From Candidatus Mycobacterium wuenschmannii (lineage in GTDB: Bacteria > Actinomycetota > Actinomycetes > Mycobacteriales > Mycobacteriaceae): a stretch of 64,000 bases of DNA. The notes beneath the pieces were generated by a model, which had not been told where the DNA came from, made no database searches, and was given only the letters and a program-made list of their open reading frames with translations. Positions 48,799 to 64,000 of the stretch are shown piece after piece (the first letter of the stretch is position 1; each line of letters opens with the position of its first letter). The translations under genes were made by a program, and so were the position numbers. The stretch is taken from contig NZ_CP126981.1 in the NCBI RefSeq assembly GCF_030252325.1, forward strand, positions 3,100,001 to 3,164,000, in the 5' to 3' direction.

Positions 48799-49659
48799 CT
48801 ACTTCCGCAGCAGGAACGCCAACACCGCGCTCTCGAAGGCCTCTTTCGCCTCGATCATCGCCCAGTGACCGCAATTCGGGAAGACGTGCAGTTCCGCGTT
48901 GGGGATGGTCCGCATCGGCAGTAGTGCCATGTCCAGCGGACTGACCCGGTCGTCACGACCCCAGGTGATCAGCGTGGGCGCCTGCACCCGATGCATCACC
49001 GCCCACGGCTGCGGCCCCTTGGACGCCTCCACGGCCTTCATCATCTGAGCGAAGGCTTCCTTGCCGTACATCCGCCGTGCGCCGGCCAGCGTCGCCGGGT
49101 CGGTGGCGTGAGTCCACCGCTCCTCGATCAGTTCCTCGGTCACGACGGCCGGGTCGTAGACCATCGAATGCAGCCACCGCACAAGGCCTTCGCGGCTCGG
49201 ATCATCGGTGAAGTCCTGCAGCAGCCGGATGCCTTCAGCGGGACCGGGGCTCAGCAGGTTGCGCCCGATACCGCCGATCGTCACCAGCCGGCGCACCCGA
49301 TCGGGGTGCGCGATCGCGTAGTTGATGCCCACGCCGCCACCCATCGAGTTACCAAGGATGTCAACGGTTTTCAGGCCGAGTTCGTCGACGAAGCGCACCA
49401 CCGCGTCCAACGCGGTGATCATCGGGTGGCCACCGAAGTCGTCGCTGACGCCGAAGCCGGGAAATTCCAGCACCAGACAGCGGAAGAACTCGGCGAAGGT
49501 GCCGAGGACGCCGCGAAAGTTCCGCCAGCCCGTCACACCGGGGCCGGATCCGTGCAGCAGCAACAGCACCGGACCGTCGGCTGGACCGGCTTCGTGATAG
49601 CGCAGAACGCCTGGCTCCGTGGCGATTTCGCGCAGGGTGCCCTCGTAGTCAGTGCTCAC
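48799..49659 (-). CDS. Meta-cleavage-product hydrolase (HsaD/BphD-like)
   Basis: A 286-residue alpha/beta hydrolase of the C-C bond hydrolase type. LLLHGSGPGVTGWRNF forms the oxyanion region, Ser105 sits in GNSMGGGVG, the acid in GRDDRVSPLD and His in NCGHWAMIE. These enzymes cut the ring-opened product of extradiol dioxygenases. GTG start is preceded by GAGGAGGAGC. It is the last gene of the minus-strand operon that begins with the Baeyer-Villiger monooxygenase and is the natural partner of the HsaC-like dioxygenase at 54.3 kb. Confidence 0.9.
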   Translation of the reverse strand: MSTDYEGTLREIATEPGVLRYHEAGPADGPVLLLLHGSGPGVTGWRNFRGVLGTFAEFFRCLVLEFPGFGVSDDFGGHPMITALDAVVRFVDELGLKTVDILGNSMGGGVGINYAIAHPDRVRRLVTIGGIGRNLLSPGPAEGIRLLQDFTDDPSREGLVRWLHSMVYDPAVVTEELIEERWTHATDPATLAGARRMYGKEAFAQMMKAVEASKGPQPWAVMHRVQAPTLITWGRDDRVSPLDMALLPMRTIPNAELHVFPNCGHWAMIEAKEAFESAVLAFLLRK

Positions 49660-49708
49660 CGGCGGCGCTCCTCCTCATCGCTGCGCTCTGCATCGTCGCC
49701 GCCGCGCG

Positions 49709-50500
49709 TCACGCGTGGGTTCCGCCATCGATCCGGATCTCGGTGCCGGTGATGAACGCACCGTCATCGGACACCAGCATCGCGATGACGCCCGCGACCG
49801 CGGAAGGAGCCGCCATCCCGGCGCCGCTGGACAGCTCCGTGGTCGGCAGGATCGGCATCAGCCTGGTGAACAGATTCCAATCGGCATCCTGCGGGATGTA
49901 TCCGCCAGTGGCATCGGTGATTCCGGACTTGATGCTTCCAGGACACACGCAAACCGCTCGCAGCCCTTTGCTCGCATACTCCAATGCCAAAGCGTGCGTG
50001 AATGATTGGACGCCACCCTTACTCGCGGCGTAGGCCGCCATATAAGGGTGCGCGAACTGGGCCGACGTCGAGCTGAAGTTGACGATCGCGCTGCGCGGCT
50101 TCTCCAGCAGGCTCGGCAGGGCTTCGCGGACGACGAGAAACGTTCCGGTCAGGTTGATTCCGATGATCTGGTTCCACAATGCCAGGTCCATCTGCTCGGT
50201 GTGGACGGCCCGCAGAATGCCCGCGGCGTTGACCACCGAATCCAGACCGTCCAGTGTCTCGACTGCCGAATGCACACCGTCGATGACAGAGCGTTCGTCG
50301 CTGATGTTCATCTCCAGCGCCGTCAGCCGCTCGCCGTTGCCGGCCTCCGCGGCCATAGCCCGGGTTTTCTCCAGGCCGTCGGCCGCGACATCGGCGCCGA
50401 CGACCTTGGCACCCTCGTCGAGCAGGCGTAGCGCGGTTGCCTGCCCGATTCCCGAAGCCGCGCCGGTCACCAGAATCCGGTTGCCATCGAGACGTTTCAT
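49709..50500 (-). CDS. Short-chain dehydrogenase/reductase
   Basis: A 263-residue classical SDR: TGAASGIGQATA for the cofactor, NAAG in strand four, NFSSTSAQFAHPYMAAYAASKG with Ser, Tyr and Lys, and the C-terminal GTEIRIDGGTHA. It lies 19 bases downstream of another SDR in the same operon. In a ketone-degrading pathway such enzymes interconvert alcohol and ketone before or after ring oxygenation; substrate unknown. Confidence 0.92.
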   Translation of the reverse strand: MKRLDGNRILVTGAASGIGQATALRLLDEGAKVVGADVAADGLEKTRAMAAEAGNGERLTALEMNISDERSVIDGVHSAVETLDGLDSVVNAAGILRAVHTEQMDLALWNQIIGINLTGTFLVVREALPSLLEKPRSAIVNFSSTSAQFAHPYMAAYAASKGGVQSFTHALALEYASKGLRAVCVCPGSIKSGITDATGGYIPQDADWNLFTRLMPILPTTELSSGAGMAAPSAVAGVIAMLVSDDGAFITGTEIRIDGGTHA

Positions 50501-50519
50501 CTGCGCGCTCCTGTCTGAC

Positions 50520-52926
<2,407 letters not shown>

Positions 52927-53090
52927 GAGAACTCACTGTAGGGAAGGCGATGTGATGGCCACGGGGATTTCCCGGTGATCGGACACCGCGACTGATCGTC
53001 TAGGTTTTCCGCCCGCTCATCGGGATCGGCCACGGATGCGCCCTGTGCTGCGGTAGACCATGACTAGGCCTAGAACCGGAGGACGACATC

Positions 53091-54275
53091 ATGAGCGAAC
53101 GTGTACTCGACCGAGTGATGGACTTGGCCGACCAGATGCGCGATCAGGCCGACCAGGCCGAGCAGATCGGCAGACTCACCGACGACACCGTCAAGATGAT
53201 GAAGTCGGCCGGTCACATCCGGCTGCTGCAGACCAAGCAGTATCAGGGCTTCGAAGCCCACCCCCGCGAGTTCGCGGAAACCACGATGGCTACCGCGGCG
53301 CTGGATCCGGCCGCCGGCTGGATCACCGGCGTGGTGGGCGTGCACCCCTACCAGCTCGCCTATGCCGACCCGAAGGTCGCTGCCGAGATCTGGGCCGACG
53401 ACGTCGACACCTGGATGGCGTCGCCGTACGCCCCGCAGGGAGTGGCCCGGCCGGTCGACGGCGGCTACATCTTCAACGGGCGCTGGCAATTCAGCTCCGG
53501 CACCGACCATTGCGACTGGATCATCCTCGGCGCGATGCTCGGCGACGAGAAGGGCATCCCGATCATGCCGCCGCAGATGGTGCACATGATCCTGCCGCGC
53601 AAGGACTACGAGATCGTCGAGGACTCGTGGAATGTGGTGGGGCTGCGCGGAACCGGCTCCAAGGACGTCATCGTCAAAGACGCGTTCGTGCCGACCTACC
53701 GGACCATGGACGCGGCCAAGGTGATGGACGGCACCGCGCAGCGCGAGGCCGGTATGACCGAGCCGCTCTACCTGATGCCGTGGTCGACGATGTTCCCCCT
53801 CGGAATCTCCGCGGCGGCGATCGGCATCGCCGAGGGTGCGCTCGCCGCGCACCTGGACTACCAGCGGGCACGAGTCGGCGCGACCGGAACCGCGATCAAG
53901 GATGACCCGTACGTCATGTACGCGGTTGGCGAGGCCGCGGCCGACATCAACGCCGCCCGTCAGGAGTTGCTCGCCAACGCCGACCGCATCTACGACATGG
54001 TCGCCGCCGGCAAAGAGGTGTCGTTCGCCGACCGGGCGGCGGGCCGCCGCACTCAGGTCCGCGCCGTGTGGCGTGCCGTCTCAGCCGTCGACGAGATCTT
54101 CGCCCGGTCCGGCGGCAACGCGGCCCGGATGGACAAGCCGTTGCAGCGCTACTGGCGCGATGTCCACGTCGCGCAGATGCACGCCATTCATGTCCCGGGC
54201 ACCACGTATCACGCGGCGGCGCTCAGTTCGCTGGGCGTGGAACCGCCGGAAGGCCCGCTGCGGGCGCTGATCTAG
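53091..54275 (+). CDS. HsaA-like flavin-dependent monooxygenase (acyl-CoA-dehydrogenase fold)
   Basis: A 394-residue protein of the HsaA/HpaB-like branch of the acyl-CoA dehydrogenase fold. Blocks include AALDPAAGWITGVVGVHPY, NGRWQFSSGTDHCDWIILGA, SWNVVGLRGTGSKDV and YWRDVHVAQMHAIH. HsaA hydroxylates a phenolic secosteroid to a catechol using reduced flavin from HsaB. No flavin reductase gene is visible in the window. GGAGG lies eight bases before the ATG. It is followed by the extradiol dioxygenase, the next enzyme of such a pathway. Confidence 0.9.
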   Translation: MSERVLDRVMDLADQMRDQADQAEQIGRLTDDTVKMMKSAGHIRLLQTKQYQGFEAHPREFAETTMATAALDPAAGWITGVVGVHPYQLAYADPKVAAEIWADDVDTWMASPYAPQGVARPVDGGYIFNGRWQFSSGTDHCDWIILGAMLGDEKGIPIMPPQMVHMILPRKDYEIVEDSWNVVGLRGTGSKDVIVKDAFVPTYRTMDAAKVMDGTAQREAGMTEPLYLMPWSTMFPLGISAAAIGIAEGALAAHLDYQRARVGATGTAIKDDPYVMYAVGEAAADINAARQELLANADRIYDMVAAGKEVSFADRAAGRRTQVRAVWRAVSAVDEIFARSGGNAARMDKPLQRYWRDVHVAQMHAIHVPGTTYHAAALSSLGVEPPEGPLRALI

Positions 54276-54286
54276 GAAGGCGAGCC

Positions 54287-55195
54287 GTGAGCGATCTGAA
54301 AAGCCTTGGCTACATCACCATTTCGACCAACGACATCGCCCGCTGGCGGCAGTTCGCCTTCGGCGTGCTCGGCTTCGCCGAAGGAAAGGGCCCCGATCCG
54401 TCGGCGCTGTATCTGCGGATGGACGAGCGCGCCGCGCGCATGATCATCGTGCCCGGCGACAGCGACCGGGTGCTGACCGTCGGCTGGGAAGTCCGCGATC
54501 ATCCTGCGCTGCAACGGGTCAAGGCGGCCCTGGACGGCGCGGGCGTCCCGTTCAAGCAGCTGTCGACCGAGGACGCCGAGGCCCGTCGGGTCGAAGAGGT
54601 CATCGCCTTCGAAGACCCGGCCGGAACGACGCTCGAGGTGTTCCACGGCGCGGTGCTCGACCACAGTCCGGTGGTCACTCCGTTCGGGGCCACGTTCGTG
54701 ACCGGCGATCAGGGCATGGGCCACGTCGTTCTCCCCGCGACAGATCCCAACGGCTTGTTCGACTTCTACACCGAGGTGCTGGGTTTCCGCTCCCGAGGCG
54801 CCTTCCGGGTGCCGCTGCCGAAGGAGTTCGGGCCGGTGCGGGTCCGCTTCCTCGGCATCAACGAGCGCCACCACAGCATGGCCATCGTGCCCGCCGCCCA
54901 TCAACGCGATCCCCGCCTGGTCCACATCATGGTCGAGGTAGACACCCTCGACGCGGTCGGCCGTGCGCTGGATCGCGTCAACGCCGAGGGCTTCCAACTG
55001 TCGTCCACGCTCGGGCGGCACACCAACGACAAGATGGTGTCGTTCTACGTCCGCGCGCCCGGCGACTGGGACATCGAGTTCGGCACCGAGGGCATGCGGG
55101 TCGACGAAACCTTCTACACCGCAGAGGAAATCACCGCCGACAGTTACTGGGGCCATCAGTGGGTCGGCGAGATGCCCGCAGCCATGCGGATGTGA
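54287..55195 (+). CDS. Extradiol catechol dioxygenase (HsaC/BphC-like)
   Basis: A 302-residue type I extradiol dioxygenase made of two VOC modules. The iron ligands of the family align at His146 (GHVVLPATDP), His213 (LVHIMVEVDTLD) and Glu264 (DWDIEFG), with the active-site base His195 in NERHHSMAI. All are present, so ring-cleaving activity is expected. The GTG start has GGAAGG six bases upstream. It follows the HsaA-like gene by 11 bases. The MCP hydrolase needed next is encoded on the opposite strand at 48.8 kb. Confidence 0.94.
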   Translation: MSDLKSLGYITISTNDIARWRQFAFGVLGFAEGKGPDPSALYLRMDERAARMIIVPGDSDRVLTVGWEVRDHPALQRVKAALDGAGVPFKQLSTEDAEARRVEEVIAFEDPAGTTLEVFHGAVLDHSPVVTPFGATFVTGDQGMGHVVLPATDPNGLFDFYTEVLGFRSRGAFRVPLPKEFGPVRVRFLGINERHHSMAIVPAAHQRDPRLVHIMVEVDTLDAVGRALDRVNAEGFQLSSTLGRHTNDKMVSFYVRAPGDWDIEFGTEGMRVDETFYTAEEITADSYWGHQWVGEMPAAMRM

Positions 55196-55199
55196 CGCG

Positions 55200-56663
55200 G
55201 TGAGCAATCCGGACGTCACGCCGATCGCGGCGTCGTCGATCACATCCTGGGACCACGAGGCCGACGTGGTGGTCGCCGGCTACGGTGTCGCGGGCGCGGC
55301 AGCAGCGGTCGAGGCGGCCCGGTCCGGCGCCGACGTCCTAGTGCTGGAGCGCACCGGCTCCTGGGGTGGTGCGGCCTCGATGGCGGGTGGCTTCATCTAT
55401 CTCGGCGGCGGCACCGCGCTCCAAACCGCCTGTGGATTCCACGATTCCGTCGATAACATGACGGCGTTCCTCAACGTCGCGATGGGGCCGGGCGCCGACG
55501 AGAACCGGATCGCCGATTACTGCGCCGGCAGCGTCGCGCACTTCGACTGGCTGGTCGGCTGCGGGGTGCCGTTCAAAGCCGAGTTCTTCGCCGAGCCCGG
55601 CTGGGAGCCGATGGGCGATCAGGGACTGATGTACAGCGGGGGCGAAAACTCCTACCCGTTCAATACGATTGCGACCCCGGCCCCGCGCGGGCACGTGCCG
55701 CAGATGCAGAACAAAAAGCAGGGCGAGGCCAGTGCGGGGTTCATGCTGATGAAGCCTCTGGTCGAAACCGCGACGGCGGCCGGGGCGCGGGCGCTGTACG
55801 ACGTTCGCGTACAGGCCCTGATCGTCGAATCCAACGGCAGGGTGGTCGGTTTGCGCGCCCGCCAGTACGGCGCCGTGATGACGATCAAGGCCCGCACCGG
55901 GGTTGTCCTCGCCACCGGCAGCTTCGCCTACAACGACGAGATGGTGGCACGCTTCGCCCCGCGCATCGCCGGCCGTCCGGCCGCATCGATCGAGCAGCAC
56001 GACGGGCAGGCCATCCGGATGGCGCAGGCGCTGGGCGCCGATCTGGCCCACATGGATGCCACCGAGGTCGCGATCTTCATCGACCCACAGCAACTGGTTC
56101 GCGGCATCCTGGTCAACGGCCGGGGCCAGCGCTACGTCGCCGAGGACACCTACCCCGGCCGGGTCGGGCAGCTCACGCTGTACCACCAGGACAACACCGC
56201 GTACCTGATCATCGACAGCGACGCGAACGACGAGGCGAACGCCTCCTGGTCGCCGAAATTGATGCTGCGCGAGGCGACCTGGGTGGCCGACACCATCGCC
56301 GACCTGGAGGGCGAAATCGGCCTGCCGACCGGGTCGCTGCAGGCAACTGTCGCGGCCTACAACGACGCCGCCGCCCGTGGCGAGGATCCGTTGCTGCACA
56401 AGAAGTCTCAATGGCTCAAGCCGATCGGCTCGCCGGTCGGCGCGATCGACCTGCGCGAGAACACCGGCGGGTTCACTCTGGGTGGACTGGCGACCACGCT
56501 GGACGCCGAGGTGCTGCACGTCAGCGGCGAACCCATTCCGGGACTGTTCGCCGCAGGACGTTCGACCGCCGGTCTGGCGGCGTGGGGCTACGCCAGCGGC
56601 ATCTCGCTGGGCGACGGCAGTTTTTACGGGCGGCGCGCCGGCCGGTCTGCCGCCAAGGGCTGA
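55200..56663 (+). CDS. FAD-binding dehydrogenase (KstD-like)
   Basis: GTG 55200 starts a 487-residue flavoprotein of the fumarate reductase/3-ketosteroid dehydrogenase group. ADVVVAGYGVAGAAAAVEAA binds FAD; GSWGGAASMAGGFIYLGGG is the typical second loop, and the C-terminal IPGLFAAGRSTAGLAAWGYAS completes the flavin site. It may desaturate a cyclic ketone next to the carbonyl, preparing ring aromatisation or cleavage (inference). It begins four bases after the dioxygenase stop and ends 103 bases before the regulator gene. Confidence 0.88.
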   Translation: MSNPDVTPIAASSITSWDHEADVVVAGYGVAGAAAAVEAARSGADVLVLERTGSWGGAASMAGGFIYLGGGTALQTACGFHDSVDNMTAFLNVAMGPGADENRIADYCAGSVAHFDWLVGCGVPFKAEFFAEPGWEPMGDQGLMYSGGENSYPFNTIATPAPRGHVPQMQNKKQGEASAGFMLMKPLVETATAAGARALYDVRVQALIVESNGRVVGLRARQYGAVMTIKARTGVVLATGSFAYNDEMVARFAPRIAGRPAASIEQHDGQAIRMAQALGADLAHMDATEVAIFIDPQQLVRGILVNGRGQRYVAEDTYPGRVGQLTLYHQDNTAYLIIDSDANDEANASWSPKLMLREATWVADTIADLEGEIGLPTGSLQATVAAYNDAAARGEDPLLHKKSQWLKPIGSPVGAIDLRENTGGFTLGGLATTLDAEVLHVSGEPIPGLFAAGRSTAGLAAWGYASGISLGDGSFYGRRAGRSAAKG

Positions 56664-56715
56664 GCTGCATCTTTTGTAAACCCTAGTGACAGCGGCCACA
56701 CCCGTGTGCTAAGTC

Positions 56716-56736
56716 TATATGACTATTAGTCATATA
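56716..56736. promoter_or_regulatory. Perfect AT-rich palindrome upstream of the IclR gene
   Basis: The arms TATATGACTA (56716-56725) and TAGTCATATA (56727-56736) are exact reverse complements around a single T. So long and AT-rich a palindrome stands out sharply in this GC-rich sequence. It ends 30 bases before the preferred ATG of the IclR regulator and probably is its operator. Confidence 0.7.
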
Positions 56737-56766
56737 TCTCCCAGCTATACGAGGGTTGGAGAAGCG

Positions 56767-57603
56767 ATGCCCGAGATCGTCAGCAGCAACGCCGCCGCTG
56801 AATCAGCCACCCCGAGCGCCATGATCGACCGCATCTCGCTGGTGCTCGACGCCTTCGATGGTCCGGGGCGCCTGACTCTCGCCCAACTTGTGCGCCGCAC
56901 CGGCCTGCCCCGCTCGTCGGCGCATCGCATGCTTGAGCGCCTCGTGGAACTGCGCTGGCTGCGTCGCAGCGGACGTGATTACGAACTCGGCACGCGATTG
57001 GTCGAGTTGGGTTCGCTCGCCGTTCATCAAGACCGGCTGGTGCGTGCCGCGCGTCCGCTGATGGGTGAACTGCACAGGGCGACCGGCCTTGTCGCGCATC
57101 TGGCGATCCTCGATGGAGCCGATGTGGTCTACCTGGAGAAGGTCGGCGACCGGTTGGCGGCCGCGATCCCCACCCGGGTCGGCGGTCGCCAGCCCGCGCA
57201 TTGCACCGCCGTCGGCAAGGCCCTTATGGCGTTCTGCGACGACCCGACCCCTGACCTCGATGCCCGCAAGACACGCTATTCGATATCCGCCAGATCCCAG
57301 CTTGCCGCCGAACTGTCCAAGGTCCGGGCACAGGGCGTCGCTTACGAGCGCGAGGAGTCACAGCTCGAATTCGGTTGCGTGGCAGCACCTATCGGCAACC
57401 CCGGCGAGGCCGTAGCCGCGGTCTCGGTCTGCGGCCCGATGAACCGCATGGCGTTCGACCAACGGCTGGCCGCGCCGGTCCGGATGACGGCAATGGGCAT
57501 TTGGCGCAATGTCGAGGGTGGCCCGCAGCGGGTCGCGCCGACACTGCAGCCGTTGCGGCCACTGGCGCCTCGCCGTCACGCACCGATGCTGCAGTACGCG
57601 TGA
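56767..57603 (+). CDS. IclR-family transcriptional regulator
   Basis: From ATG 56767, five bases after GGAG, the protein is 278 residues; an earlier ATG at 56719 lies inside the palindrome and is not used here. The winged HTH is LTLAQLVRRTGLPRSSAHRM then LERLVELRWLRRSGRDYELG, and the effector domain runs from HRATGLVAHLAILDGADVVY to FGCVAAPIG. IclR proteins often govern aromatic degradation genes. Its stop overlaps the esterase GTG by four bases. The C-terminus is a Pro/Arg-rich tail. Confidence 0.9.
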   Translation: MPEIVSSNAAAESATPSAMIDRISLVLDAFDGPGRLTLAQLVRRTGLPRSSAHRMLERLVELRWLRRSGRDYELGTRLVELGSLAVHQDRLVRAARPLMGELHRATGLVAHLAILDGADVVYLEKVGDRLAAAIPTRVGGRQPAHCTAVGKALMAFCDDPTPDLDARKTRYSISARSQLAAELSKVRAQGVAYEREESQLEFGCVAAPIGNPGEAVAAVSVCGPMNRMAFDQRLAAPVRMTAMGIWRNVEGGPQRVAPTLQPLRPLAPRRHAPMLQYA

Positions 57604-58520
57604 CACTCGACCCACAGCTCGAGCCGCTGATCGAGGCTCTCGACGCCGGATTCCCGCCGGTGCACACGATGACCGGGGCGCAAGCCCGCGCCACGATCAA
57701 GTCACGATTCGCGCGCCCGCTCGATCCCGAGCCAGTGGCCGAGGTGCGCGACGTCGTCGTGCCCGGCCCGGGCGGCGACATACCGGTGCGGATCTACCGC
57801 CCCTCCCACGACGCGAGCCTTCCGATCCTGATCTACGGGCATGGCGGCGGGTTCGTGTTCTGCGATCTGGACAGCCACGATGGACTGTGCCGCGACATCG
57901 CGAATCGCACTCCGGCCGTGATCATCTCGGTCGACTACCGGCTGGCTCCCGAGCATCCGTGGCCCGCCGCCGCCGAGGATTTTTACGCGGCCGCCCAATG
58001 GGCGGCAGACAATGCCGCGGATCTCGGGGGTGACGCGCAGCGCATCGTGCTGGGCGGCGACAGCGCCGGTGGGAACCTCGCTGCCGTCACCGCGGTGATG
58101 ACGCGCGACCGCGGCGGGCACCCGATCGCCGCTCAGCTGCTGATCTACCCGGTGATCGCCGCGAACTTCGCTACCGAGTCATACCGGTTGTACGGCAAGG
58201 GTTTCTACAACCCGGAGCCGGCGATGCGTTGGTACTGGGACCAGTACGTGCCAGCCGTAGCCGATCGAAAGCACCCGTACGCCTCGCCGTTGCAGGCCGA
58301 CCTGGCCGGGCTGCCGCCGGCGGTCGTCGTCATCGCCGGGCACGATCCTTTGCGCGACGAAGGTCTCATGTTCGCTGACGCACTCGACGCCGCGGGCGTC
58401 AGCACAGCGCGATGCGTGTTCGAGGGTGGTATCCACGGCTTCGTGACGATGCCGACGCTGGGCATCGCGCAGCAGGCCCGGCAGGAGTCCTGCCGTGAGT
58501 TGTCCCGGTTACTGGGCTGA
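57600..58520 (+). CDS. Hormone-sensitive-lipase-family esterase
   Basis: A 306-residue HSL-family (family IV) esterase, GTG start. HGGGF holds the oxyanion residues from His81, Ser155 lies in LGGDSAGGNL, Asp in IAGHDPLRDE and His in GGIHGF. It should hydrolyse short acyl esters in the cytoplasm, which makes it a natural follow-up to a Baeyer-Villiger enzyme. It overlaps the IclR gene and is followed by two small genes on the same strand. Confidence 0.92.
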   Translation: MTLDPQLEPLIEALDAGFPPVHTMTGAQARATIKSRFARPLDPEPVAEVRDVVVPGPGGDIPVRIYRPSHDASLPILIYGHGGGFVFCDLDSHDGLCRDIANRTPAVIISVDYRLAPEHPWPAAAEDFYAAAQWAADNAADLGGDAQRIVLGGDSAGGNLAAVTAVMTRDRGGHPIAAQLLIYPVIAANFATESYRLYGKGFYNPEPAMRWYWDQYVPAVADRKHPYASPLQADLAGLPPAVVVIAGHDPLRDEGLMFADALDAAGVSTARCVFEGGIHGFVTMPTLGIAQQARQESCRELSRLLG

Positions 58521-58523
58521 GCC

Positions 58524-58871
58524 GTGACCGATCACCGAGTATTTGTCATCGACCGAATGGTCACCAAACCCGGGTGCGCCAGAACACTTGTGGACAGCTA
58601 TCTTTCGCAGTATGCGCCTGGCGCCCGCGAGCGGGGCATGACATTGCGTGAGGTGTTGGTCAGCCCGCCGATCTGGTCAACGGGATTGTCCAACACGGTC
58701 ACGATCACCTGGACGTTGCCCAGCGCGGAGGCCTGGTGGGAGATGACATGGAAGGGGCGTCCCGACCCCGCGTTGGGCGAATGGTGGTCGCGGATCGGCG
58801 AATTGCTCGTCGAGCGGACGCGGCAATTCGCAGCGGCCCCGGACGACGTCGACGAACTCTGCGATGTATAG
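58524..58871 (+). CDS. Small protein of unknown function, possible Dabb-like fold
   Basis: A 115-residue protein with GTG start three bases after the esterase. I do not recognise it with confidence. VFVIDRMVTKPGCARTLVDSY and TITWTLPSAEAWWEMTW suggest an alpha-beta ferredoxin-like (Dabb/ABM) fold, like its downstream neighbour. It overlaps the next gene by eight bases. Members of this fold near catabolic genes can be cyclases, decarboxylases or small monooxygenases. Confidence 0.65.
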   Translation: MTDHRVFVIDRMVTKPGCARTLVDSYLSQYAPGARERGMTLREVLVSPPIWSTGLSNTVTITWTLPSAEAWWEMTWKGRPDPALGEWWSRIGELLVERTRQFAAAPDDVDELCDV

Positions 58872-59487
58872 CGTCACTCGCCTGCTCGACGTCGGCGCCG
58901 GTGCGCGCGATCGCGTCCTGGCCACGGCACGTTCGGCCGCCGCGGACACCGGCGCGCGGCTACGCCTGGTTGAGCCGACGCTTCCAGGGTCTCGCAATGG
59001 TGGCGACATACTCGTACACCTGAGATTCGGCACGGTTGACGGATGGCACAGCAGTGCAGCATCTTTCGACGCAGTGTTACGTGACCGAGACGTCACGCGC
59101 ATCAACGGGGCAAGCTATCCAGGGACTGCGACGAACCGTGATGGCGGCACCATCTACCGGACGCTGCTGCTGCGGGTGCAGCCGAATGTCCACGCCGACG
59201 TCGTGGCACGTTTCGAAGACGACCTCCTGTCGATGACCCGCTACGTACCCGCGATCACGGCGTGGCAACTGAGCCGAGTCGATCACGCGATGGGCGATGC
59301 ACAGTGGACGCACGTGTTCGAGCAGGAGTTCAGCGACGCCCGCGGCCTCAACAGGGCCTACCTGATGCACCCAATCCACTGGGCGGTGGTGGACCGCTGG
59401 TTCGACCCGGAGTGTCCCGAGGTGATCGTCCGAGACCGGTTGTGCCACAGCTTCTGTGCAGCGGTGCCGTCGACCGGACTGTTCTGA
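58864..59487 (+). CDS. Dabb-like (stress-responsive A/B barrel) protein
   Basis: A 207-residue protein with two related halves. The second half (IYRTLLLRVQPNVHADVVAR, FEDDLLSMTRYVPAITAWQL, DAQWTHVFEQEFSDARGLNR, YLMHPIHWAVVDRWFDPE) is a typical Dabb domain; the first half looks like a degenerate copy, so the monomer may form a whole barrel. Conserved His residues near the HP-H motif could be catalytic. It ends one base before the convergent SDR's stop. Confidence 0.75.
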   Translation: MYSVTRLLDVGAGARDRVLATARSAAADTGARLRLVEPTLPGSRNGGDILVHLRFGTVDGWHSSAASFDAVLRDRDVTRINGASYPGTATNRDGGTIYRTLLLRVQPNVHADVVARFEDDLLSMTRYVPAITAWQLSRVDHAMGDAQWTHVFEQEFSDARGLNRAYLMHPIHWAVVDRWFDPECPEVIVRDRLCHSFCAAVPSTGLF

Positions 59488-59488
59488 G

Positions 59489-60376
59489 TCACACGCCAGC
59501 GGCCAGCACATGGGGATTCGCATTCGCCGGCGGCGGCATCGGCTCCAGTACGGTGACGCCGTCGAGAGTGCGCACCGGTAACTGCTGTGACCACGGATAG
59601 TGCAGGCTGAACGCCACCAGGCCGGTGCGATCGCGGGCCGGACGATGGCACATCGCCAACACCGTCTCCGCCAGGTACTCCACCGGCTCAGTCGGAAAAT
59701 CATCCGGAATCAGTTGCGCCGCACCGGGTGTACGGACAGCGGTCGAAGGGCCGACACAGTTGACCGCGATGTTGTCGTCGACCAATTCGGCGGCGACCCC
59801 TTGGGTGAAGCGGTGCAGTCCGGCTTTGCAGGACGCATAGACCACGTCGCCCGCGACCTTGTTGTAGTCACGGTAGGGCCGCACCGGGGCCACCCCGGTG
59901 ACCGATCCGATGTTGACGATCCAGCCGCCGCCCTGTCGTTGCATGTGCGGTATCGCGGCTTGGGTGAGCGCGAACGGTGCCCGCAGGTAGTGCTCCACGG
60001 TCCGGTCGAAGGTCTCCATCGGCATCTCCGCCACCCGCGCGTAGTCGGCGAAACCGGCGTTGTTGACGAGGATGTCGATACGGCCCGTTCGATCCAGCAC
60101 CGCGTCTATCAGCCTTTGACGGGCCTCGGCGTCCTCCAGGTCGGCGGCGAGCCCGAATGCTGAACCGCCGGCGGCGTCGATCAGGGTGACGGTCTCGTCG
60201 ATCGTTCCGGGCAATGCCGTGGGTGCGCCGGCCCGGATCGACGGTGTAGGCTGGAGGGCGCGCGCCGTCACGGCGACCGTCGCACCTTCCGCCCCGAGTC
60301 GCTGGGCGATTGCCCGCCCGATGCCCCGGCTGCTGCCGGTCACCAAAGCTGTTCTGCCGTGCAGCAACTTGCTCAT
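59489..60376 (-). CDS. Short-chain dehydrogenase/reductase
   Basis: From ATG 60376 the protein has 295 residues. TGSSRGIGRAIAQRLG binds the cofactor, NNAG marks strand four, and NIGSVTGVAPVRPYRDYNKV and VVYASCKAGLHR supply Ser, Tyr and Lys. An insert of about 20 residues after VTARALQPTPSIRAG and a long C-terminus set it apart from classical SDRs. Its ATG overlaps the upstream monooxygenase stop by four bases, so the two act in one transcript. Confidence 0.9.
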   Translation of the reverse strand: MSKLLHGRTALVTGSSRGIGRAIAQRLGAEGATVAVTARALQPTPSIRAGAPTALPGTIDETVTLIDAAGGSAFGLAADLEDAEARQRLIDAVLDRTGRIDILVNNAGFADYARVAEMPMETFDRTVEHYLRAPFALTQAAIPHMQRQGGGWIVNIGSVTGVAPVRPYRDYNKVAGDVVYASCKAGLHRFTQGVAAELVDDNIAVNCVGPSTAVRTPGAAQLIPDDFPTEPVEYLAETVLAMCHRPARDRTGLVAFSLHYPWSQQLPVRTLDGVTVLEPMPPPANANPHVLAAGV

Positions 60377-62334
60377 CGCAGGACGAAGTCTTCTTCGATC
60401 GGTGCACGATGCTGCTGCCAGATGTCGACCAGTCGATACGGTGTCGCCACCACCACTCTGCCCGACCCCGACCGGTAATAGGTGTGCGCGGTCGGCGTGT
60501 GGCACCACACGGTCCGGGCCATCGCCGTGTCGATCGCCGCCACGTAGTCCTGGTATGCCCGTCGCGTCACCTCGATGGTGGCCGCACCGCGCAACGCCAT
60601 CAACTGCAGGCATTCGACGATGTAGTGCGCCAGCACCTCCATCGAAAAATTAGCTCCCGCACCGTGTCCCGGGCTGTAGTTCGGCGCCGACATGGTGAAC
60701 AGGTTGGGGAAGCCAGGGACCGTGCCCCCGCGGTAGGCCCGCGGGCTGTCGCCCCACTCGTCCGTCAGCTTCTTCCCATCACGGCCACGAATGTCGATGG
60801 TGGACAGGAAGTCCAAGTGGTAACCGGTCGCGTAGACGATCACGTCGAGGTCGACCTCCCGACCATCCTGCGTGACAATGCCTTTCGCGTTGACCTCGGC
60901 CGGCTCGGCGGCTTCGACGTCGACATGATCGCGGGCAAGTGCCGCATAGTAGCCGCCGGGATCCCGGATGATCCGCTTGCCATAGGGCGCGAAGTCCGGC
61001 GTCACCTTCCTCGCCAACTCGGAATCCTTGCCGAATACCCGGTCGATGTAGTCCAGGCACATCTGCAGCAGTACATCGTTCGCAGGCGAAATGGACAGGT
61101 GGTCCTTGGCCCACTCCGGGTCCTGCAGGATGATCGGATAGTTGTTGTCCGCCGTGCCCCAGTAGGACTTCAGCCGATTCCAGTTCGCGTAGTGGGGCAG
61201 ATGTCTCCCGAGATAGCGCTTGTGCGCAGGGACGACGTCGGTGAGGCGCTTGCGCGGCGCGACCCAATGCGGCTGGCGCTGAAACACCGTCAGATGACCC
61301 ACCTGGTCGACGCAGGCGTCGACGATCTGCACCGCCGTGCATCCCGCTCCGATGATGCCGACCCTCTTCCCGGCGAGATCGAGCGAAGTGTCCCACCGTG
61401 CCGAGTGAATACTGATGCCCTCGAACGTGTCTCGTCCCTTGACTGCCGGCCAGCGTGGACGATTCAAGTAGCCGGCTGCGGTCACGACAGCGGCTGCGTA
61501 ATCGGTGACGCGCCGGCCGTCGGCGTCGACCGAGCGAATCTCCCACCGCTTGCCGTCCTCGTCCCACCACAGTGCCTCGACCTCGGTCTGAAACCGAATG
61601 TGTTCGCGCAGCCGATGTTTGTCAGCGAGCGCCACCAGGTAGGCCTGGTACTCCGCACCCTGCGGGTAGTAGCTGGACCAATCCGCGTTCACCTCACGCG
61701 ACAGCGAGTAGTACGCCGATGGGGTGTCGACACCGATACCGGGATAGACCGTGCTGTACCACGTTCCGCCCACCTCTGGGTTGCGGTCGAAGATCGTGTA
61801 CCGCACCCCCGCGTCGGCCGCGGTTAGCGCGACGCTGATGCCGGCGATACCTGCACCGACGATCGCGAGGTCGACAGTGATCGGAGCCGTACGTGGAAGG
61901 ACAGGCTGCGAAAGCTGAAAGCCACCCTGTTCGAGGAGCAGATCCACCTGCTCGTCGTCGACCGCCGAGCCCAGCGCGATCGGTAGCAGCCGCGTGAAGA
62001 ACTCGCGGTCGCAGGCCTGGCCGGGGCCAGTGTGCGACACCTGCCCCAGCGCGTCGACGATTTGCGCGACCAGCGCAGCGGTCGTGTCGGCATCGGCGAC
62101 GCCGGCCCGCTCGGGCGGGTCAGGGACGTGTGAAATCTTGTCGGCGTAGCGCTCGAGCACGCCCACGTCACCGGTCAACTGCGCCAGCACCGCAACAAGC
62201 ACACCCGGGTCGGCCTGCCGCAGGTTGTCCCGCAGTTCGTCGACATTGGTCGGACCCATGGCGTCGAGTATCGAAACCCGAAGCTGCCGGGGACAGAGAC
62301 TGTTCCACTCACCGGACACCTCGATCGCCGGCAC
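60373..62334 (-). CDS. Baeyer-Villiger monooxygenase with N-terminal extension (HAPMO-like)
   Basis: A 653-residue flavin monooxygenase. GAGIAG (160-165) binds FAD, GAGCTA (329-334) binds NADPH, and the BVMO fingerprint reads FEGISIHSARW (304-314). About 150 residues precede the flavin domain (ADPGVLVAVLAQLTGD, DREFFTRLLPIALG), as in 4-hydroxyacetophenone monooxygenase, where the extra domain aids dimerisation. This points to an aryl or bulky ketone. GTG 62334 is the outermost start; ATG 62259 (MGPTNVDELRDN) is possible and neither has a good ribosome-binding site. Confidence 0.92.
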   Translation of the reverse strand: MPAIEVSGEWNSLCPRQLRVSILDAMGPTNVDELRDNLRQADPGVLVAVLAQLTGDVGVLERYADKISHVPDPPERAGVADADTTAALVAQIVDALGQVSHTGPGQACDREFFTRLLPIALGSAVDDEQVDLLLEQGGFQLSQPVLPRTAPITVDLAIVGAGIAGISVALTAADAGVRYTIFDRNPEVGGTWYSTVYPGIGVDTPSAYYSLSREVNADWSSYYPQGAEYQAYLVALADKHRLREHIRFQTEVEALWWDEDGKRWEIRSVDADGRRVTDYAAAVVTAAGYLNRPRWPAVKGRDTFEGISIHSARWDTSLDLAGKRVGIIGAGCTAVQIVDACVDQVGHLTVFQRQPHWVAPRKRLTDVVPAHKRYLGRHLPHYANWNRLKSYWGTADNNYPIILQDPEWAKDHLSISPANDVLLQMCLDYIDRVFGKDSELARKVTPDFAPYGKRIIRDPGGYYAALARDHVDVEAAEPAEVNAKGIVTQDGREVDLDVIVYATGYHLDFLSTIDIRGRDGKKLTDEWGDSPRAYRGGTVPGFPNLFTMSAPNYSPGHGAGANFSMEVLAHYIVECLQLMALRGAATIEVTRRAYQDYVAAIDTAMARTVWCHTPTAHTYYRSGSGRVVVATPYRLVDIWQQHRAPIEEDFVLR

Positions 62335-62360
62335 GTTCGCACAAGGGTTGACTGACCGAC

Positions 62361-62840
62361 ATGACGAACGACATCACACTGTCGGACCTTCAAGAGTTCA
62401 TCGCCGCCTTCTGGTACGCCTACGACGAGGCGCACTTCGAGGAACTCACCGCGAACCTTGCCGAGGACGTGCATTACGTCACGCGAAGCGACAGCGGCGC
62501 AAGTCCATTCGAGGAATTGATGTCACCCGAGATGCACGGTCGCGCGGCCGTGATGGAATGGATGACCGAGCACCGCCGGCAGAGCCCTTACCCGCTGCGG
62601 CACCACGCCACCAACATTCACCGCACCGGCCGGGACGGCCCGGCCACCACAGCCCGGTTCTACATCCTGGTCAACCAGATCGCCAATTTCGTGCCGTTTG
62701 CGGTGTCGAGTGGTGTGGTCGACGTCAGTGTTCGACGCGGGAGCTCAGGTTTGATGTTCACCGACATGGAAGTTGTTCTGGATACTCAGAATTCGGTGCT
62801 GTTATCTGAATTCACCGCCGACAGCGCCGCGGGGTCGTGA
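62361..62840 (+). CDS. SnoaL/NTF2-like protein
   Basis: A 159-residue protein of NTF2-like fold: LQEFIAAFWYAYDEAHFEEL, NLAEDVHYVTRSDSG, MHGRAAVMEWMTEHRRQSPY, LRHHATNIHR and ARFYILVNQI. The His pair in LRHHATN is often at the active site of SnoaL-like or aromatic ring-hydroxylase small-subunit-like proteins. It diverges from the second BVMO across only 26 bases and overlaps the next SDR by four, so it is translated with it. Confidence 0.82.
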   Translation: MTNDITLSDLQEFIAAFWYAYDEAHFEELTANLAEDVHYVTRSDSGASPFEELMSPEMHGRAAVMEWMTEHRRQSPYPLRHHATNIHRTGRDGPATTARFYILVNQIANFVPFAVSSGVVDVSVRRGSSGLMFTDMEVVLDTQNSVLLSEFTADSAAGS

Positions 62841-63667
62841 ACGCGCGGGACAATTTTTTGGGCGGCATTGCCGTCGTCACCGGGGCTGGGGCCGGCGTCG
62901 GCGCCGGCATCGCGCGGTACGCGAGCGGGCTTGGCATGACGGTGGTGCTGGTCGATATCGATGGTGAGGCAATCGCCTCCGTTCGTGACGAGTTGTCCGC
63001 CGAGGGCGGCGCCGTGCATCTCGCGACCTGCGACGTGCGCGACGCGGACGCGATGCAGGACCTGGCGGAGCGCACTTACCACGAACTCGGCCCGGTGCGT
63101 CTGCTCGTCAACAACGCGGGGATCGAACAGTTTGGCTACCTCTGGGATACGCCGATCGCCAATTGGCAACGCGTGCTGGACATAAACGTCACTGGTGTGT
63201 TCAACGGGGTGCGCGCGTTCTTGCCGAGAATGATGGCCACCCGCGAACACGCTTGGGTGTGGAACCTGTCGTCGGTCGGCGGTGTGGTCGCCATCCCGTT
63301 GCAGGCCCCCTACATCATGAGCAAGCACGCGGTGCTGGCGCTGACCGAGTGTTTGCATCTGGATGTTCAGTCCGCAGGCCACGGCGAGCACATTCACGTC
63401 CAAGCCGTGCTACCCGGGGCCGTGGTATCCGACATCTTCGAGTCGGCCGGCGGAGTCGACGGCGGTGACGTCGCTGCGGCTGACGCACAGCGCACGGCGA
63501 TGCTGTGCGTCAAGGCCGGGGCGATGGATCCGCTCGCTGCGGCCGCGACGCTGTTCGACCAGTCCGCGGCGGGCCAGTTCTACCTCTTGACGCAGGAGTC
63601 GGTGCGCACGGCGATGACTGAGCGCGCCAATACCCTTGCTGTACAACGTCCCCCGAGACTCCGGTGA
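62837..63667 (+). CDS. Short-chain dehydrogenase/reductase
   Basis: A 276-residue SDR with GTG start overlapping the SnoaL-like stop (GTGA). TGAGAGVGAGIA binds the cofactor, NNAG marks strand four, and NLSSVGGVVAIPLQAPYIMSKH gives Ser, Tyr and Lys. The C-terminal 70 residues differ from classical SDRs and lack the usual DGG end. Its own stop overlaps the following esterase start, making a three-gene coupled operon that leaves the window. Confidence 0.9.
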   Translation: MNARDNFLGGIAVVTGAGAGVGAGIARYASGLGMTVVLVDIDGEAIASVRDELSAEGGAVHLATCDVRDADAMQDLAERTYHELGPVRLLVNNAGIEQFGYLWDTPIANWQRVLDINVTGVFNGVRAFLPRMMATREHAWVWNLSSVGGVVAIPLQAPYIMSKHAVLALTECLHLDVQSAGHGEHIHVQAVLPGAVVSDIFESAGGVDGGDVAAADAQRTAMLCVKAGAMDPLAAAATLFDQSAAGQFYLLTQESVRTAMTERANTLAVQRPPRLR

Positions 63668-64000
63668 GCATGCCACTGCTGGACGCGGACGCCGCCGCCC
63701 GGGTGGCGTCCTTCGGCAAGATCCCGCCGATGCGCCAGCGCGGGTTGACGTCGATCCGGTCCGCCATCGAGTCGGCGCCATTGCCCGACGGCATGCCTGC
63801 GATGGCAGGCATCGCCGACATCTCGATACCCGGGCCTGACGGCGCACTCGACCTACGGATCTACCGTCCGACAGACGAACCAGCCCAGCCGGGACTGGTC
63901 TACTTCCACGGCGGGGGCCTCGTAATGGGGTCCAACCACTCGTTCGAGCCGCTTGCCCGGGGTTTGGCCTCGGCCTCGGGTGCGACCGTCGTTGCCGTGG
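63664..64000 (+). CDS. Hormone-sensitive-lipase-family esterase (3' end outside window)
   Basis: The first 112 codons of a second HSL-type esterase. IYRPTDEPAQPGLVYFHGGG contains the HGGG oxyanion motif, and the reading stops at the window edge before the serine motif. GTG 63664 overlaps the SDR stop by four bases; an ATG two codons on is an alternative. Like the esterase at 57.6 kb, it lies near a Baeyer-Villiger monooxygenase, so each BVMO has a nearby esterase. Confidence 0.85.
   Translation, partial: MSMPLLDADAAARVASFGKIPPMRQRGLTSIRSAIESAPLPDGMPAMAGIADISIPGPDGALDLRIYRPTDEPAQPGLVYFHGGGLVMGSNHSFEPLARGLASASGATVVAV

What the first reader, a model, noticed from the sequence alone, without database searches (positions are those of the whole stretch)
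48799..64000. Undescribed-looking ketone catabolic cluster joining two BVMO-esterase pairs to an HsaA/HsaC/HsaD-like ring-cleavage set
Seen directly: two BVMO fingerprints, two HGGG-type esterases, an HsaA-like oxygenase, an extradiol dioxygenase with its full 2-His-1-Glu set, an MCP hydrolase, a KstD-like flavoprotein, four SDRs and an IclR regulator, arranged in four mutually divergent coupled operons. Known chemistry: BVMO gives an ester, an esterase releases a phenol or alcohol, HsaA-type enzymes make catechols, HsaC-type enzymes open them, HsaD-type enzymes cut the product. Inference: the cluster degrades an aryl or alicyclic ketone (acetophenone-, terpenoid- or steroid-like). It lies right of the segment collinear with M. 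tuberculosis. Flavin reductase and hydratase/aldolase genes are not in the window.
Basis: partly seen in the sequence, partly recalled or inferred. Interest (0 to 1): 0.8.

Follow-up and report, generated by a model that had tools for sequence, protein, structure and literature searches.

The report
Steroid side-chain and ring degradation cluster
This Mycobacterium carries a second steroid-eating gene cluster that pairs ring-opening enzymes with an enzyme closely related to one that clips the side chain off progesterone, which suggests what this widespread but poorly understood kind of cluster is for.

Summary
In detail: every named gene is there, in four alternating blocks (48799-64000); the second esterase ends at 64641. 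BVMO1 is 65% identical to the structurally solved progesterone-oxidising steroid monooxygenase (STMO). The "KstD-like" protein is a close homologue of a Delta4-(5alpha)-ketosteroid dehydrogenase. Just past base 64000 lie a second KshA, a KstD and a PadR gene. The HsaA/C/D-like proteins are diverged paralogues of the cholesterol set, which sits about 97 kb away beside a flavin reductase gene. STMO itself nests among BVMOs encoded within 10 kb of kshA-hsaA-hsaC in other genera. Among 90 family genomes an STMO-like BVMO and this HsaA co-occur (39 both, 45 neither, 6 one only), within 30 kb in 19 of 27 with known positions. Best reading: a C-19+-type steroid cluster with a Baeyer-Villiger/esterase module that turns 20-keto C21 steroids (progesterone, pregnanes) into C19 androgens for the 9,10-seco pathway. 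Chemistry is inferred from homology; no activity was tested. New variant of a known kind. The roles of BVMO2, several SDRs and the small proteins remain open.

The parts
48799..49659 (-). HsaD-like meta-cleavage product hydrolase
   Evidence: NF045632 HsaD 270.9 bits (cut-off 400, not reached), best of 37 families; PDB HsaD 5JZ9 210 bits; GNSMG nucleophile motif
49709..50500 (-). SDR oxidoreductase 1 (possible hydroxysteroid dehydrogenase)
   Evidence: PF13561/PF00106
50520..51296 (-). SDR oxidoreductase 2
   Evidence: NF053702 240.6 bits, below cut-off 400; start codon assigned by eye
51286..52926 (-). BVMO1, STMO-type Baeyer-Villiger monooxygenase
   Evidence: PDB 4AOS steroid monooxygenase 782 bits vs phenylacetone monooxygenase 615; 65% identity; tree
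53091..54275 (+). HsaA-type flavin-dependent oxygenase, divergent paralogue
   Evidence: NF045629 365.7 bits (cut-off 450); PDB 2OR0 550 bits, 3AFE 313; tree
54287..55195 (+). HsaC/BphC-type extradiol dioxygenase
   Evidence: TIGR03213 376.4 >= 366.45; NF045631 HsaC 368.8 < 450; PDB 2ZI8 297 bits
55200..56663 (+).
   Evidence: PDB 4AT0 739 bits, next best 106; PRK07121.1-5 958 >= 812
56719..57603 (+). IclR-family regulator
   Evidence: PF01614, PF09339
57600..58520 (+). LipP1-family HGGG esterase, candidate steroid-ester hydrolase
   Evidence: NF058653 386.6 >= 350; HGGG and GDSAG
58524..58871 (+). 115-aa protein without family match; conserved in cluster
   Evidence: no Pfam/NCBIfam match; 53 of 80 loci
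58864..59487 (+). Dabb-domain protein
   Evidence: PF07876 56.5 bits; 52 of 80 loci
59489..60376 (-). SDR oxidoreductase 3
   Evidence: PF00106; 50 of 80 loci
60373..62259 (-). BVMO2, about 628 aa with N-terminal extension
   Evidence: fingerprints; length 628, where many homologues are named 4-hydroxyacetophenone monooxygenase by JGI annotation
62361..62840 (+). SnoaL_4 (NTF2-like) protein
   Evidence: PF13577 34.3 bits
62837..63667 (+). SDR oxidoreductase 4
   Evidence: PF00106
63664..64000 (+). second HGGG esterase; gene continues to 64641 outside the window
   Evidence: Abhydrolase_3 219.6 bits; LipP1 289.9 < 350

Best explanation
A second, dedicated steroid catabolic cluster that degrades 20-keto C21 steroids (progesterone and 5alpha-reduced pregnanes). 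Proposed order: SDRs set 3-keto/20-keto states; the Delta4-(5alpha)-dehydrogenase makes the 4-en-3-one; BVMO1 (STMO-type) inserts oxygen between C17 and C20 giving testosterone acetate; a LipP1-type esterase releases testosterone and acetate; an SDR gives androstenedione; the neighbouring KstD and KshA open ring B to a phenolic 9,10-secosteroid; the HsaA-like oxygenase (with a flavin reductase supplied in trans) makes the catechol, the HsaC-like enzyme cleaves it, the HsaD-like enzyme splits the product; the remainder goes to the canonical cholesterol pathway. Shown here: gene content, homology, motifs, conserved linkage. Inferred: every reaction and its order, the trans use of HsaB, and the roles of BVMO2, SDRs, SnoaL, Dabb and 115-aa proteins.
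For: BVMO1's closest solved relative is STMO, 782 vs 615 bits for phenylacetone monooxygenase, 65% identity over 526 positions. STMO nests (support 100/97) with five BVMO1s lying within 10 kb of kshA-hsaA-hsaC in other genera, 70-76% identical to it. FAD protein vs 4AT0 739 bits. Neighbouring KshA: PF19298 307 bits, PDB 4QDF_B 607 bits. Neighbouring KstD: NF009479 1033 >= 793. Cluster HsaA clade separate (98/91) from canonical HsaA. STMO-like BVMO and this HsaA in 90 family genomes: 39 both, 5 HsaA only, 1 BVMO only, 45 neither, Fisher p 1e-18; within 30 kb in 19 of 27 with known places. Published: STMO and the C. tardaugens BVMO turn progesterone into testosterone acetate (PMC12239570, passages); R. 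ruber KstD2 prefers progesterone (PMC5348764, abstract and passages), though its orthology to this KstD was not shown.
Against: No activity tested. 10 of 59 full-flank mycobacterial loci carry the ring core without BVMO1 nearby; 10 of 20 loci of other genera show none in the stretch fetched, though in two of those genomes (L100, L105) it lies about 12 kb away. Module members also occur without BVMO1: lipP1 in L011, L100, L102, L105, L108, L117, and BVMO2, SDR3, Dabb, 115-aa and lipP1 in a 40-kb stretch of G655. With relatedness controlled, BVMO1/BVMO2 association rests on 5 supported independent pairs (about 2.8 same way, 0 opposite; median p 0.25). Cross-genome co-occurrence may partly reflect catabolic richness; the BVMO cut-off (E 1e-185) admits hits of 53-55% identity, and at most 15 candidates per genome were scored. 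HsaA, HsaC and HsaD models miss their equivalog cut-offs. BVMO2 is unexplained. The progesterone paper credits M. smegmatis progesterone use to a luciferase-like enzyme, not a BVMO. BVMO specificity is not predictable at 65% identity.
Confidence: 0.66

Rival explanations
1. The cluster is for C19 steroids as such: BVMO1 and/or BVMO2 lactonise the 17-ketone (ring D) of androstenedione-type compounds and the esterases open the lactone; C21 side chains are not the natural substrate.
For: Ring core resembles the C-19+ cluster of M. smegmatis, described as necessary for efficient use of C19 steroids (PMC5962712, passages); two BVMO/esterase sets would fit two sites.
Against: STMO was reported not to lactonise androstenedione (PMC12239570, passage), and BVMO1 groups with STMO.
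Confidence: 0.12
2. Substrates are plant or fungal steroids/triterpenoids with other 17-side-chain ketones (pregnane glycoside aglycones, saponin or alkaloid breakdown products), with progesterone only an analogue.
For: Many SDRs, SnoaL, Dabb and unknown proteins beyond what progesterone needs; homologues of the 359-aa neighbour in Sphingomonas and other Proteobacteria.
Against: No glycosidase or transporter among the genes scanned in the cluster; no direct evidence either way.
Confidence: 0.14
3. One reading: aryl or terpenoid ketone degradation (acetophenone-like), with Hsa-like enzymes recruited for a simple phenol.
For: Many BVMO2 homologues are annotated 4-hydroxyacetophenone monooxygenase; the dioxygenase passes the BphC model cut-off.
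Against: KshA, KstD, Delta4-(5alpha)-dehydrogenase and STMO-type BVMO in one recurring cluster.
Confidence: 0.05
4. Only a chance neighbourhood of independent catabolic genes beside mce genes.
For: The genome has 23 FMO-like matches, so BVMOs are common; one close relative (L011) lacks much of the middle.
Against: Same genes recur together in other chromosomal settings and genera.
Confidence: 0.03

Closest known systems
Steroid monooxygenase (STMO) of Rhodococcus rhodochrous (PDB 4AOS)
   Same: 65% identity, same fingerprints, sister subclade among cluster-linked BVMOs
   Different: STMO was characterised as an enzyme; the passage read says that work did not describe the catabolic pathway. Activity of BVMO1 untested.
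C-19+ gene cluster of Mycobacterium smegmatis (Fernandez-Cabezon 2017, 2018, seen only through citing papers; range MSMEG_2851-2901 recalled)
   Same: Second KshA/KstD/Hsa-type set apart from the cholesterol regulon; kshA-kstD-padR neighbours here match the tags MSMEG_2870 and 2869 in papers and 2868 as PadR (recalled)
   Different: Whether the M. smegmatis cluster holds an STMO-like BVMO could not be checked; its sequence was not compared. Its substrates are called yet unknown (PMC6593523, passage).
Rhodococcus ruber Chol-4 steroid cluster (PMC6498646, Fig. 5c legend)
   Same: Legend lists kstD, kshA, a hydroxylase, hsaC, iclR, padR and chnB (cyclohexanone monooxygenase)
   Different: BVMO not discussed: 0 occurrences of Baeyer or progesterone in that text. 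Sequences not compared here.
pdc cluster of Caenibius tardaugens
   Same: Baeyer-Villiger opening of progesterone before the 9,10-seco pathway (PMC12239570)
   Different: Proteobacterial, four genes (BVMO, LLM, two regulators), no ring-degrading genes in that cluster.
Canonical hsaA/hsaC cholesterol genes of the same genome (C1:3249898-3253306)
   Same: Homologous HsaA (40%) and HsaC (48%)
   Different: Has a flavin reductase gene beside hsaC; about 97 kb away; separate HsaA clade.

Membership tests
STMO-type BVMO (BVMO1) | Type I BVMO fingerprints and two Rossmann motifs | tested here: met
STMO-type BVMO (BVMO1) | Groups with STMO rather than other BVMOs | tested here: met
   4AOS 782 vs phenylacetone monooxygenase 615 bits; tree: STMO within the cluster-linked clade, fork joining its subclade to the mycobacterial one 84/96; phenylacetone monooxygenase was not in the tree
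STMO-type BVMO (BVMO1) | Converts progesterone to testosterone acetate | not testable with these tools
   needs enzyme assay
3-ketosteroid Delta4-(5alpha)-dehydrogenase | Close sequence match to the solved enzyme including its active-site Tyr319, Tyr466, Ser468 (residues recalled) | tested here: met
   739 bits; the three positions conserved by eye in the printed alignment, allowing a 20-residue offset in chain numbering
KshA (neighbour, outside window) | KshA_C domain, Rieske CxH...CxxH and HxxxxH | tested here: met
KstD (neighbour, outside window) | NCBIfam 3-ketosteroid Delta1-dehydrogenase model over cut-off | tested here: met
   NF009479 1033 >= 793
HsaA equivalog NF045629 | Score over 450 | tested here: not met
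   365.7; therefore called HsaA-like paralogue
HsaC equivalog NF045631 | Score over 450 | tested here: not met
   368.8; TIGR03213 BphC met, 376.4 >= 366.45
HsaD equivalog NF045632 | Score over 400 | tested here: not met
   270.9
C-19+ cluster (M. smegmatis) | kshA-kstD-PadR neighbours plus second hsaA/C/D | tested here: inconclusive
4-hydroxyacetophenone monooxygenase (BVMO2) | Sequence grouping with characterised HAPMO | not tested
   no chain of that name among the PDB matches shown; only annotation names
LipP1 hormone-sensitive lipase family | NF058653 over 350 | tested here: met
   first esterase 386.6; second esterase 289.9, not met

The most novel reading that the evidence does not exclude
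The STMO-linked clusters are a dedicated, modular pregnane/progestogen catabolic system of Mycobacteriales: a ring-degrading core (KshA, KstD, HsaA2, HsaC2, HsaD-like) with a largely separable Baeyer-Villiger/esterase module. This would be the missing pathway context of STMO and the natural role of at least some clusters now called C-19+ or of unknown substrate, and would include new players (BVMO2, the 115-aa, Dabb and SnoaL proteins and the uncharacterised 359-aa neighbour).
Probability: 0.5. Interest if true: 0.72.

Novelty: new variant of a known kind. Interest (0 to 1): 0.56.

Why it matters
Progesterone and other C21 steroids are common pollutants. A 2025 paper states that the pathways of complete oxic progesterone mineralisation remain unknown (PMC12239570, start of abstract), and a 2019 paper says the C-19 cluster degrades yet unknown steroids (PMC6593523, passage). 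Linkage of STMO-like BVMOs to the HsaA-like gene in 19 of 27 genomes with known places gives both questions one testable answer: the inducer and substrate are 20-keto C21 steroids. The HsaA-like gene occurs in 268 of 396 genomes of the genus sampled, so the trait, if real, is common. It also matters for industrial strains that make C19/C21 steroid synthons.

Tried and rejected
Acetophenone/terpenoid reading: rejected because BVMO1, the FAD protein and the neighbouring KshA and KstD have steroid enzymes as closest solved relatives. hsaB, hsaEFG or kshB in the cluster: none recognised among the genes scanned to 73548; only flavin reductases were searched genome-wide (two loci, both elsewhere). 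Strict module rule (module genes only with BVMO1): true in the 59-locus count but broken by L011 and five loci of other genera for lipP1 and by G655 for BVMO2, SDR3, Dabb, 115-aa and lipP1. Tree-controlled association test: run, underpowered (its printout was cut). Structure of the 359-aa neighbour: one AlphaFold job, mean pLDDT 45.8, not used further; no family for it or two homologues. Literature: searches, open PMC library only. Thirteen papers were opened, by term passages only, none read whole; none of the passages seen links an STMO-type BVMO with an HsaA2/KshA cluster as a progesterone pathway. The primary C-19+ papers, the STMO papers and Petrusma 2011 were not read. Dropped rows: in the 59-locus count, 21 of 80 loci with short flanks; in the 27-genome count, 12 of the 39 genomes with both genes, because their HsaA position was not printed (and the window's own genome); where a genome has several HsaA hits, only printed ones were compared. 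Lists and positions for one search were copied by hand. One search's fad1 row used a wrong frame and is replaced.


Full report
What is there. The window is C1:3100001-3164000 of a single-contig 5.10 Mb genome, a Mycobacterium judging by the 80 nearest loci, all titled Mycobacterium or Mycolicibacterium. Beyond base 64000 (L009) the right block continues with the second esterase (to 64641) and a 359-aa protein without any family (64686-65765), followed by KshA (66061-67335, -), KstD (67334-68986, +), PadR (68987-69655, -), a hotdog thioesterase-like gene, an amidohydrolase, an SDR and an enoyl-CoA hydratase, then an OtsA-type gene and MCE genes. On the left is an LCP-family gene. From memory, these flanks correspond to Rv3484 and Rv3490 plus mce4 of M. 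tuberculosis.

What the proteins are. BVMO1 (546 aa) matches steroid monooxygenase (PDB 4AOS) at 782 bits and phenylacetone monooxygenase at 615, with 65% identity to the former over 526 positions. The FAD protein matches the Delta4-(5alpha)-ketosteroid dehydrogenase 4AT0 at 739 bits, the next structure at 106. The neighbouring KshA has PF19298 at 307 bits and matches 4QDF chain B at 607 bits and 2ZYL at 514 (that these are R. rhodochrous KshA5 and M. tuberculosis KshA is recalled). The neighbouring KstD passes NF009479 (1033, cut-off 793). HsaA-, HsaC- and HsaD-like proteins are best matched by Hsa/Bph families but do not reach the Hsa equivalog cut-offs; their nearest structures are 2OR0, named only Hydroxylase (550 bits, against 313 for 3AFE), 2ZI8 (HsaC, 297) and 5JZ9 (HsaD, 210) (organisms recalled, and HsaC as the identity of 2ZI8 is recalled). 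The same genome has a more canonical HsaA (40% identical) and HsaC (48%) at 3250395-3253306 with a flavin reductase gene beside them, one of two in the genome. In a 48-row tree the cluster-type HsaA proteins form a clade of 43 (98/91) apart from the canonical pair, the genome's own and 3AFE.

Is it one inherited unit? Of 80 mycobacterial loci found by the HsaA-like protein (the best 80 of 214), 65 have BVMO1 (at least 55% identity) and 78 have HsaC; of the 59 with full flanks 49 have BVMO1. In these 49, BVMO2, SDR3, the 115-aa and the Dabb genes are present in 44, 44, 45 and 45, lipP1 in 31 and iclR in 49; in the ten without BVMO1 the first five are in 0 each and iclR in 4, while HsaC (48 and 10), the Delta4 dehydrogenase (43 and 8) and HsaD (48 and 9) do not depend on it. 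This suggests a ring core plus a Baeyer-Villiger module. The counts are not independent: on the HsaA tree of 77 loci BVMO1 needs at least 12 changes, but only five supported independent pairs exist, and the association with BVMO2 there (about 2.8 the same way, 0 opposite) is not significant. In stretches of about 40 kb the set runs from hsaD through bvmo1, hsaA, hsaC, fad1, iclR, bvmo2, sdr4, est2 and the 359-aa gene to kshA and kstD in G642 and G586; G717 is read as far as kshA and G439 as far as the 359-aa gene and an SDR. Of the 15 genomes read this way, G312, G239 and G655 show no BVMO1; G655 nevertheless has BVMO2, SDR3, Dabb, 115-aa and lipP1. L011, a close relative, lacks BVMO1, fad1, iclR and BVMO2 but keeps lipP1. 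So the module is a strong tendency, not a rule.

Other genera. In 20 loci of other genera of the family, chosen from the search of 401 genomes (196 positive), kshA is near in 17, hsaC in 18, iclR in 13, padR in 13, lipP1 in 11 and BVMO1 in 10; in two of the ten without, L100 and L105, the BVMO lies about 12 kb from hsaA, just outside the stretch. In a 48-row BVMO tree the solved STMO sits (100/97) with the cluster-linked BVMO1s of five of these loci and is 70-76% identical to them. Among 90 family genomes (own genome left out) 39 have both an STMO-like BVMO (E at most 1e-185; a few only at 53-55% identity) and the HsaA-like protein, 5 only the latter, 1 only the former, 45 neither (Fisher p 1e-18); of 27 with both places known, 19 pairs lie within 30 kb, 7 on different contigs and 1 far apart. 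A gene would fall that near by chance in about 1.2% of cases in a 5 Mb genome.

How it most likely works. The set reads as a path for 20-keto C21 steroids: oxidation state by SDRs, ring-A Delta4 bond by the Delta4-(5alpha)-dehydrogenase, C17-C20 oxygen insertion by BVMO1, ester cleavage by a LipP1-type esterase, 17-oxidation by an SDR, ring-B opening by KstD and KshA, ring-A cleavage by the HsaA/C/D-like set with a flavin reductase supplied from elsewhere. Shown: genes, homology, motifs and linkage. Inferred: all reactions and their order. The second BVMO and esterase may serve other 20-ketosteroids or ring D; the two redundant Baeyer-Villiger enzymes of C. tardaugens with different preferences are a published parallel (PMC12239570, abstract and passages).

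Compared with what is known. The ring core resembles the C-19+ cluster of M. smegmatis: papers put KshA_2 at MSMEG_2870 (PMC6593523), kstD2 at MSMEG_2869 (PMC5962712) and a further minor KSD at MSMEG_2867 (PMC10672877); kshA, kstD and padR are neighbours here too (PadR at 2868 is recalled). The sequence itself was not compared, so membership stays open. Papers call its substrates unknown and its natural activation not established. The progesterone paper reports by personal communication that M. smegmatis uses progesterone after activation of a cluster it calls ADD+, but credits a luciferase-like monooxygenase, MSMEG_4862, not a BVMO: this supports a C21 link and speaks against a BVMO being required there. 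The R. ruber figure legend lists the same kind of cluster with a cyclohexanone monooxygenase. A steroid protein subclade that includes R. jostii cluster 2 and M. smegmatis proteins is of unknown function (PMC4810484, passage).

Verdict. Real, conserved, steroidal, and larger than the window shows. Not categorically new: known enzymes and a known kind of cluster, with a Baeyer-Villiger/esterase module whose linkage gives a specific, testable substrate. Interest 0.56.

Noticed in passing
C1:3164686-3165765, just right of the window (L009:4686-5765): Uncharacterised ~359-aa protein, no Pfam/NCBIfam family; 957 homologues, and among the 120 listed some named from Proteobacteria (Parahaliea, Sphingomonas, a gammaproteobacterial MAG) at 71-73% identity; 82-88% conserved in the same cluster of five other mycobacteria. 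Invariant GHLD and H-R-G-E segments might be metal ligands (speculation).
   Followed up: partly
L120/L121 (G029) and L122/L123 (G112): Two neighbouring copies of bvmo1-hsaA-hsaC-fad1 about 10 kb apart, which looks like a duplication of the core.
   Followed up: no
L011:1300-13000: Reduced cluster (cpsA-hsaD-sdr1-sdr2-hsaA-hsaC-lipP1-sdr5-ech-otsA) in a close relative, lacking BVMO1, fad1, iclR, BVMO2: possible decay.
   Followed up: no
Genome C1, whole: 23 FMO-like/BVMO matches and five KshA_C matches in a 5.1 Mb genome.
   Followed up: no
L160:8295-9905: An AMP-binding (acyl-CoA ligase-like) gene sits between BVMO2 and snoaL in a relative's cluster but not in the window.
   Followed up: partly
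L058 and L074: Mycobacterium sp. 4858 holds two loci, one without and one with BVMO1: a natural pair for comparison.
   Followed up: no
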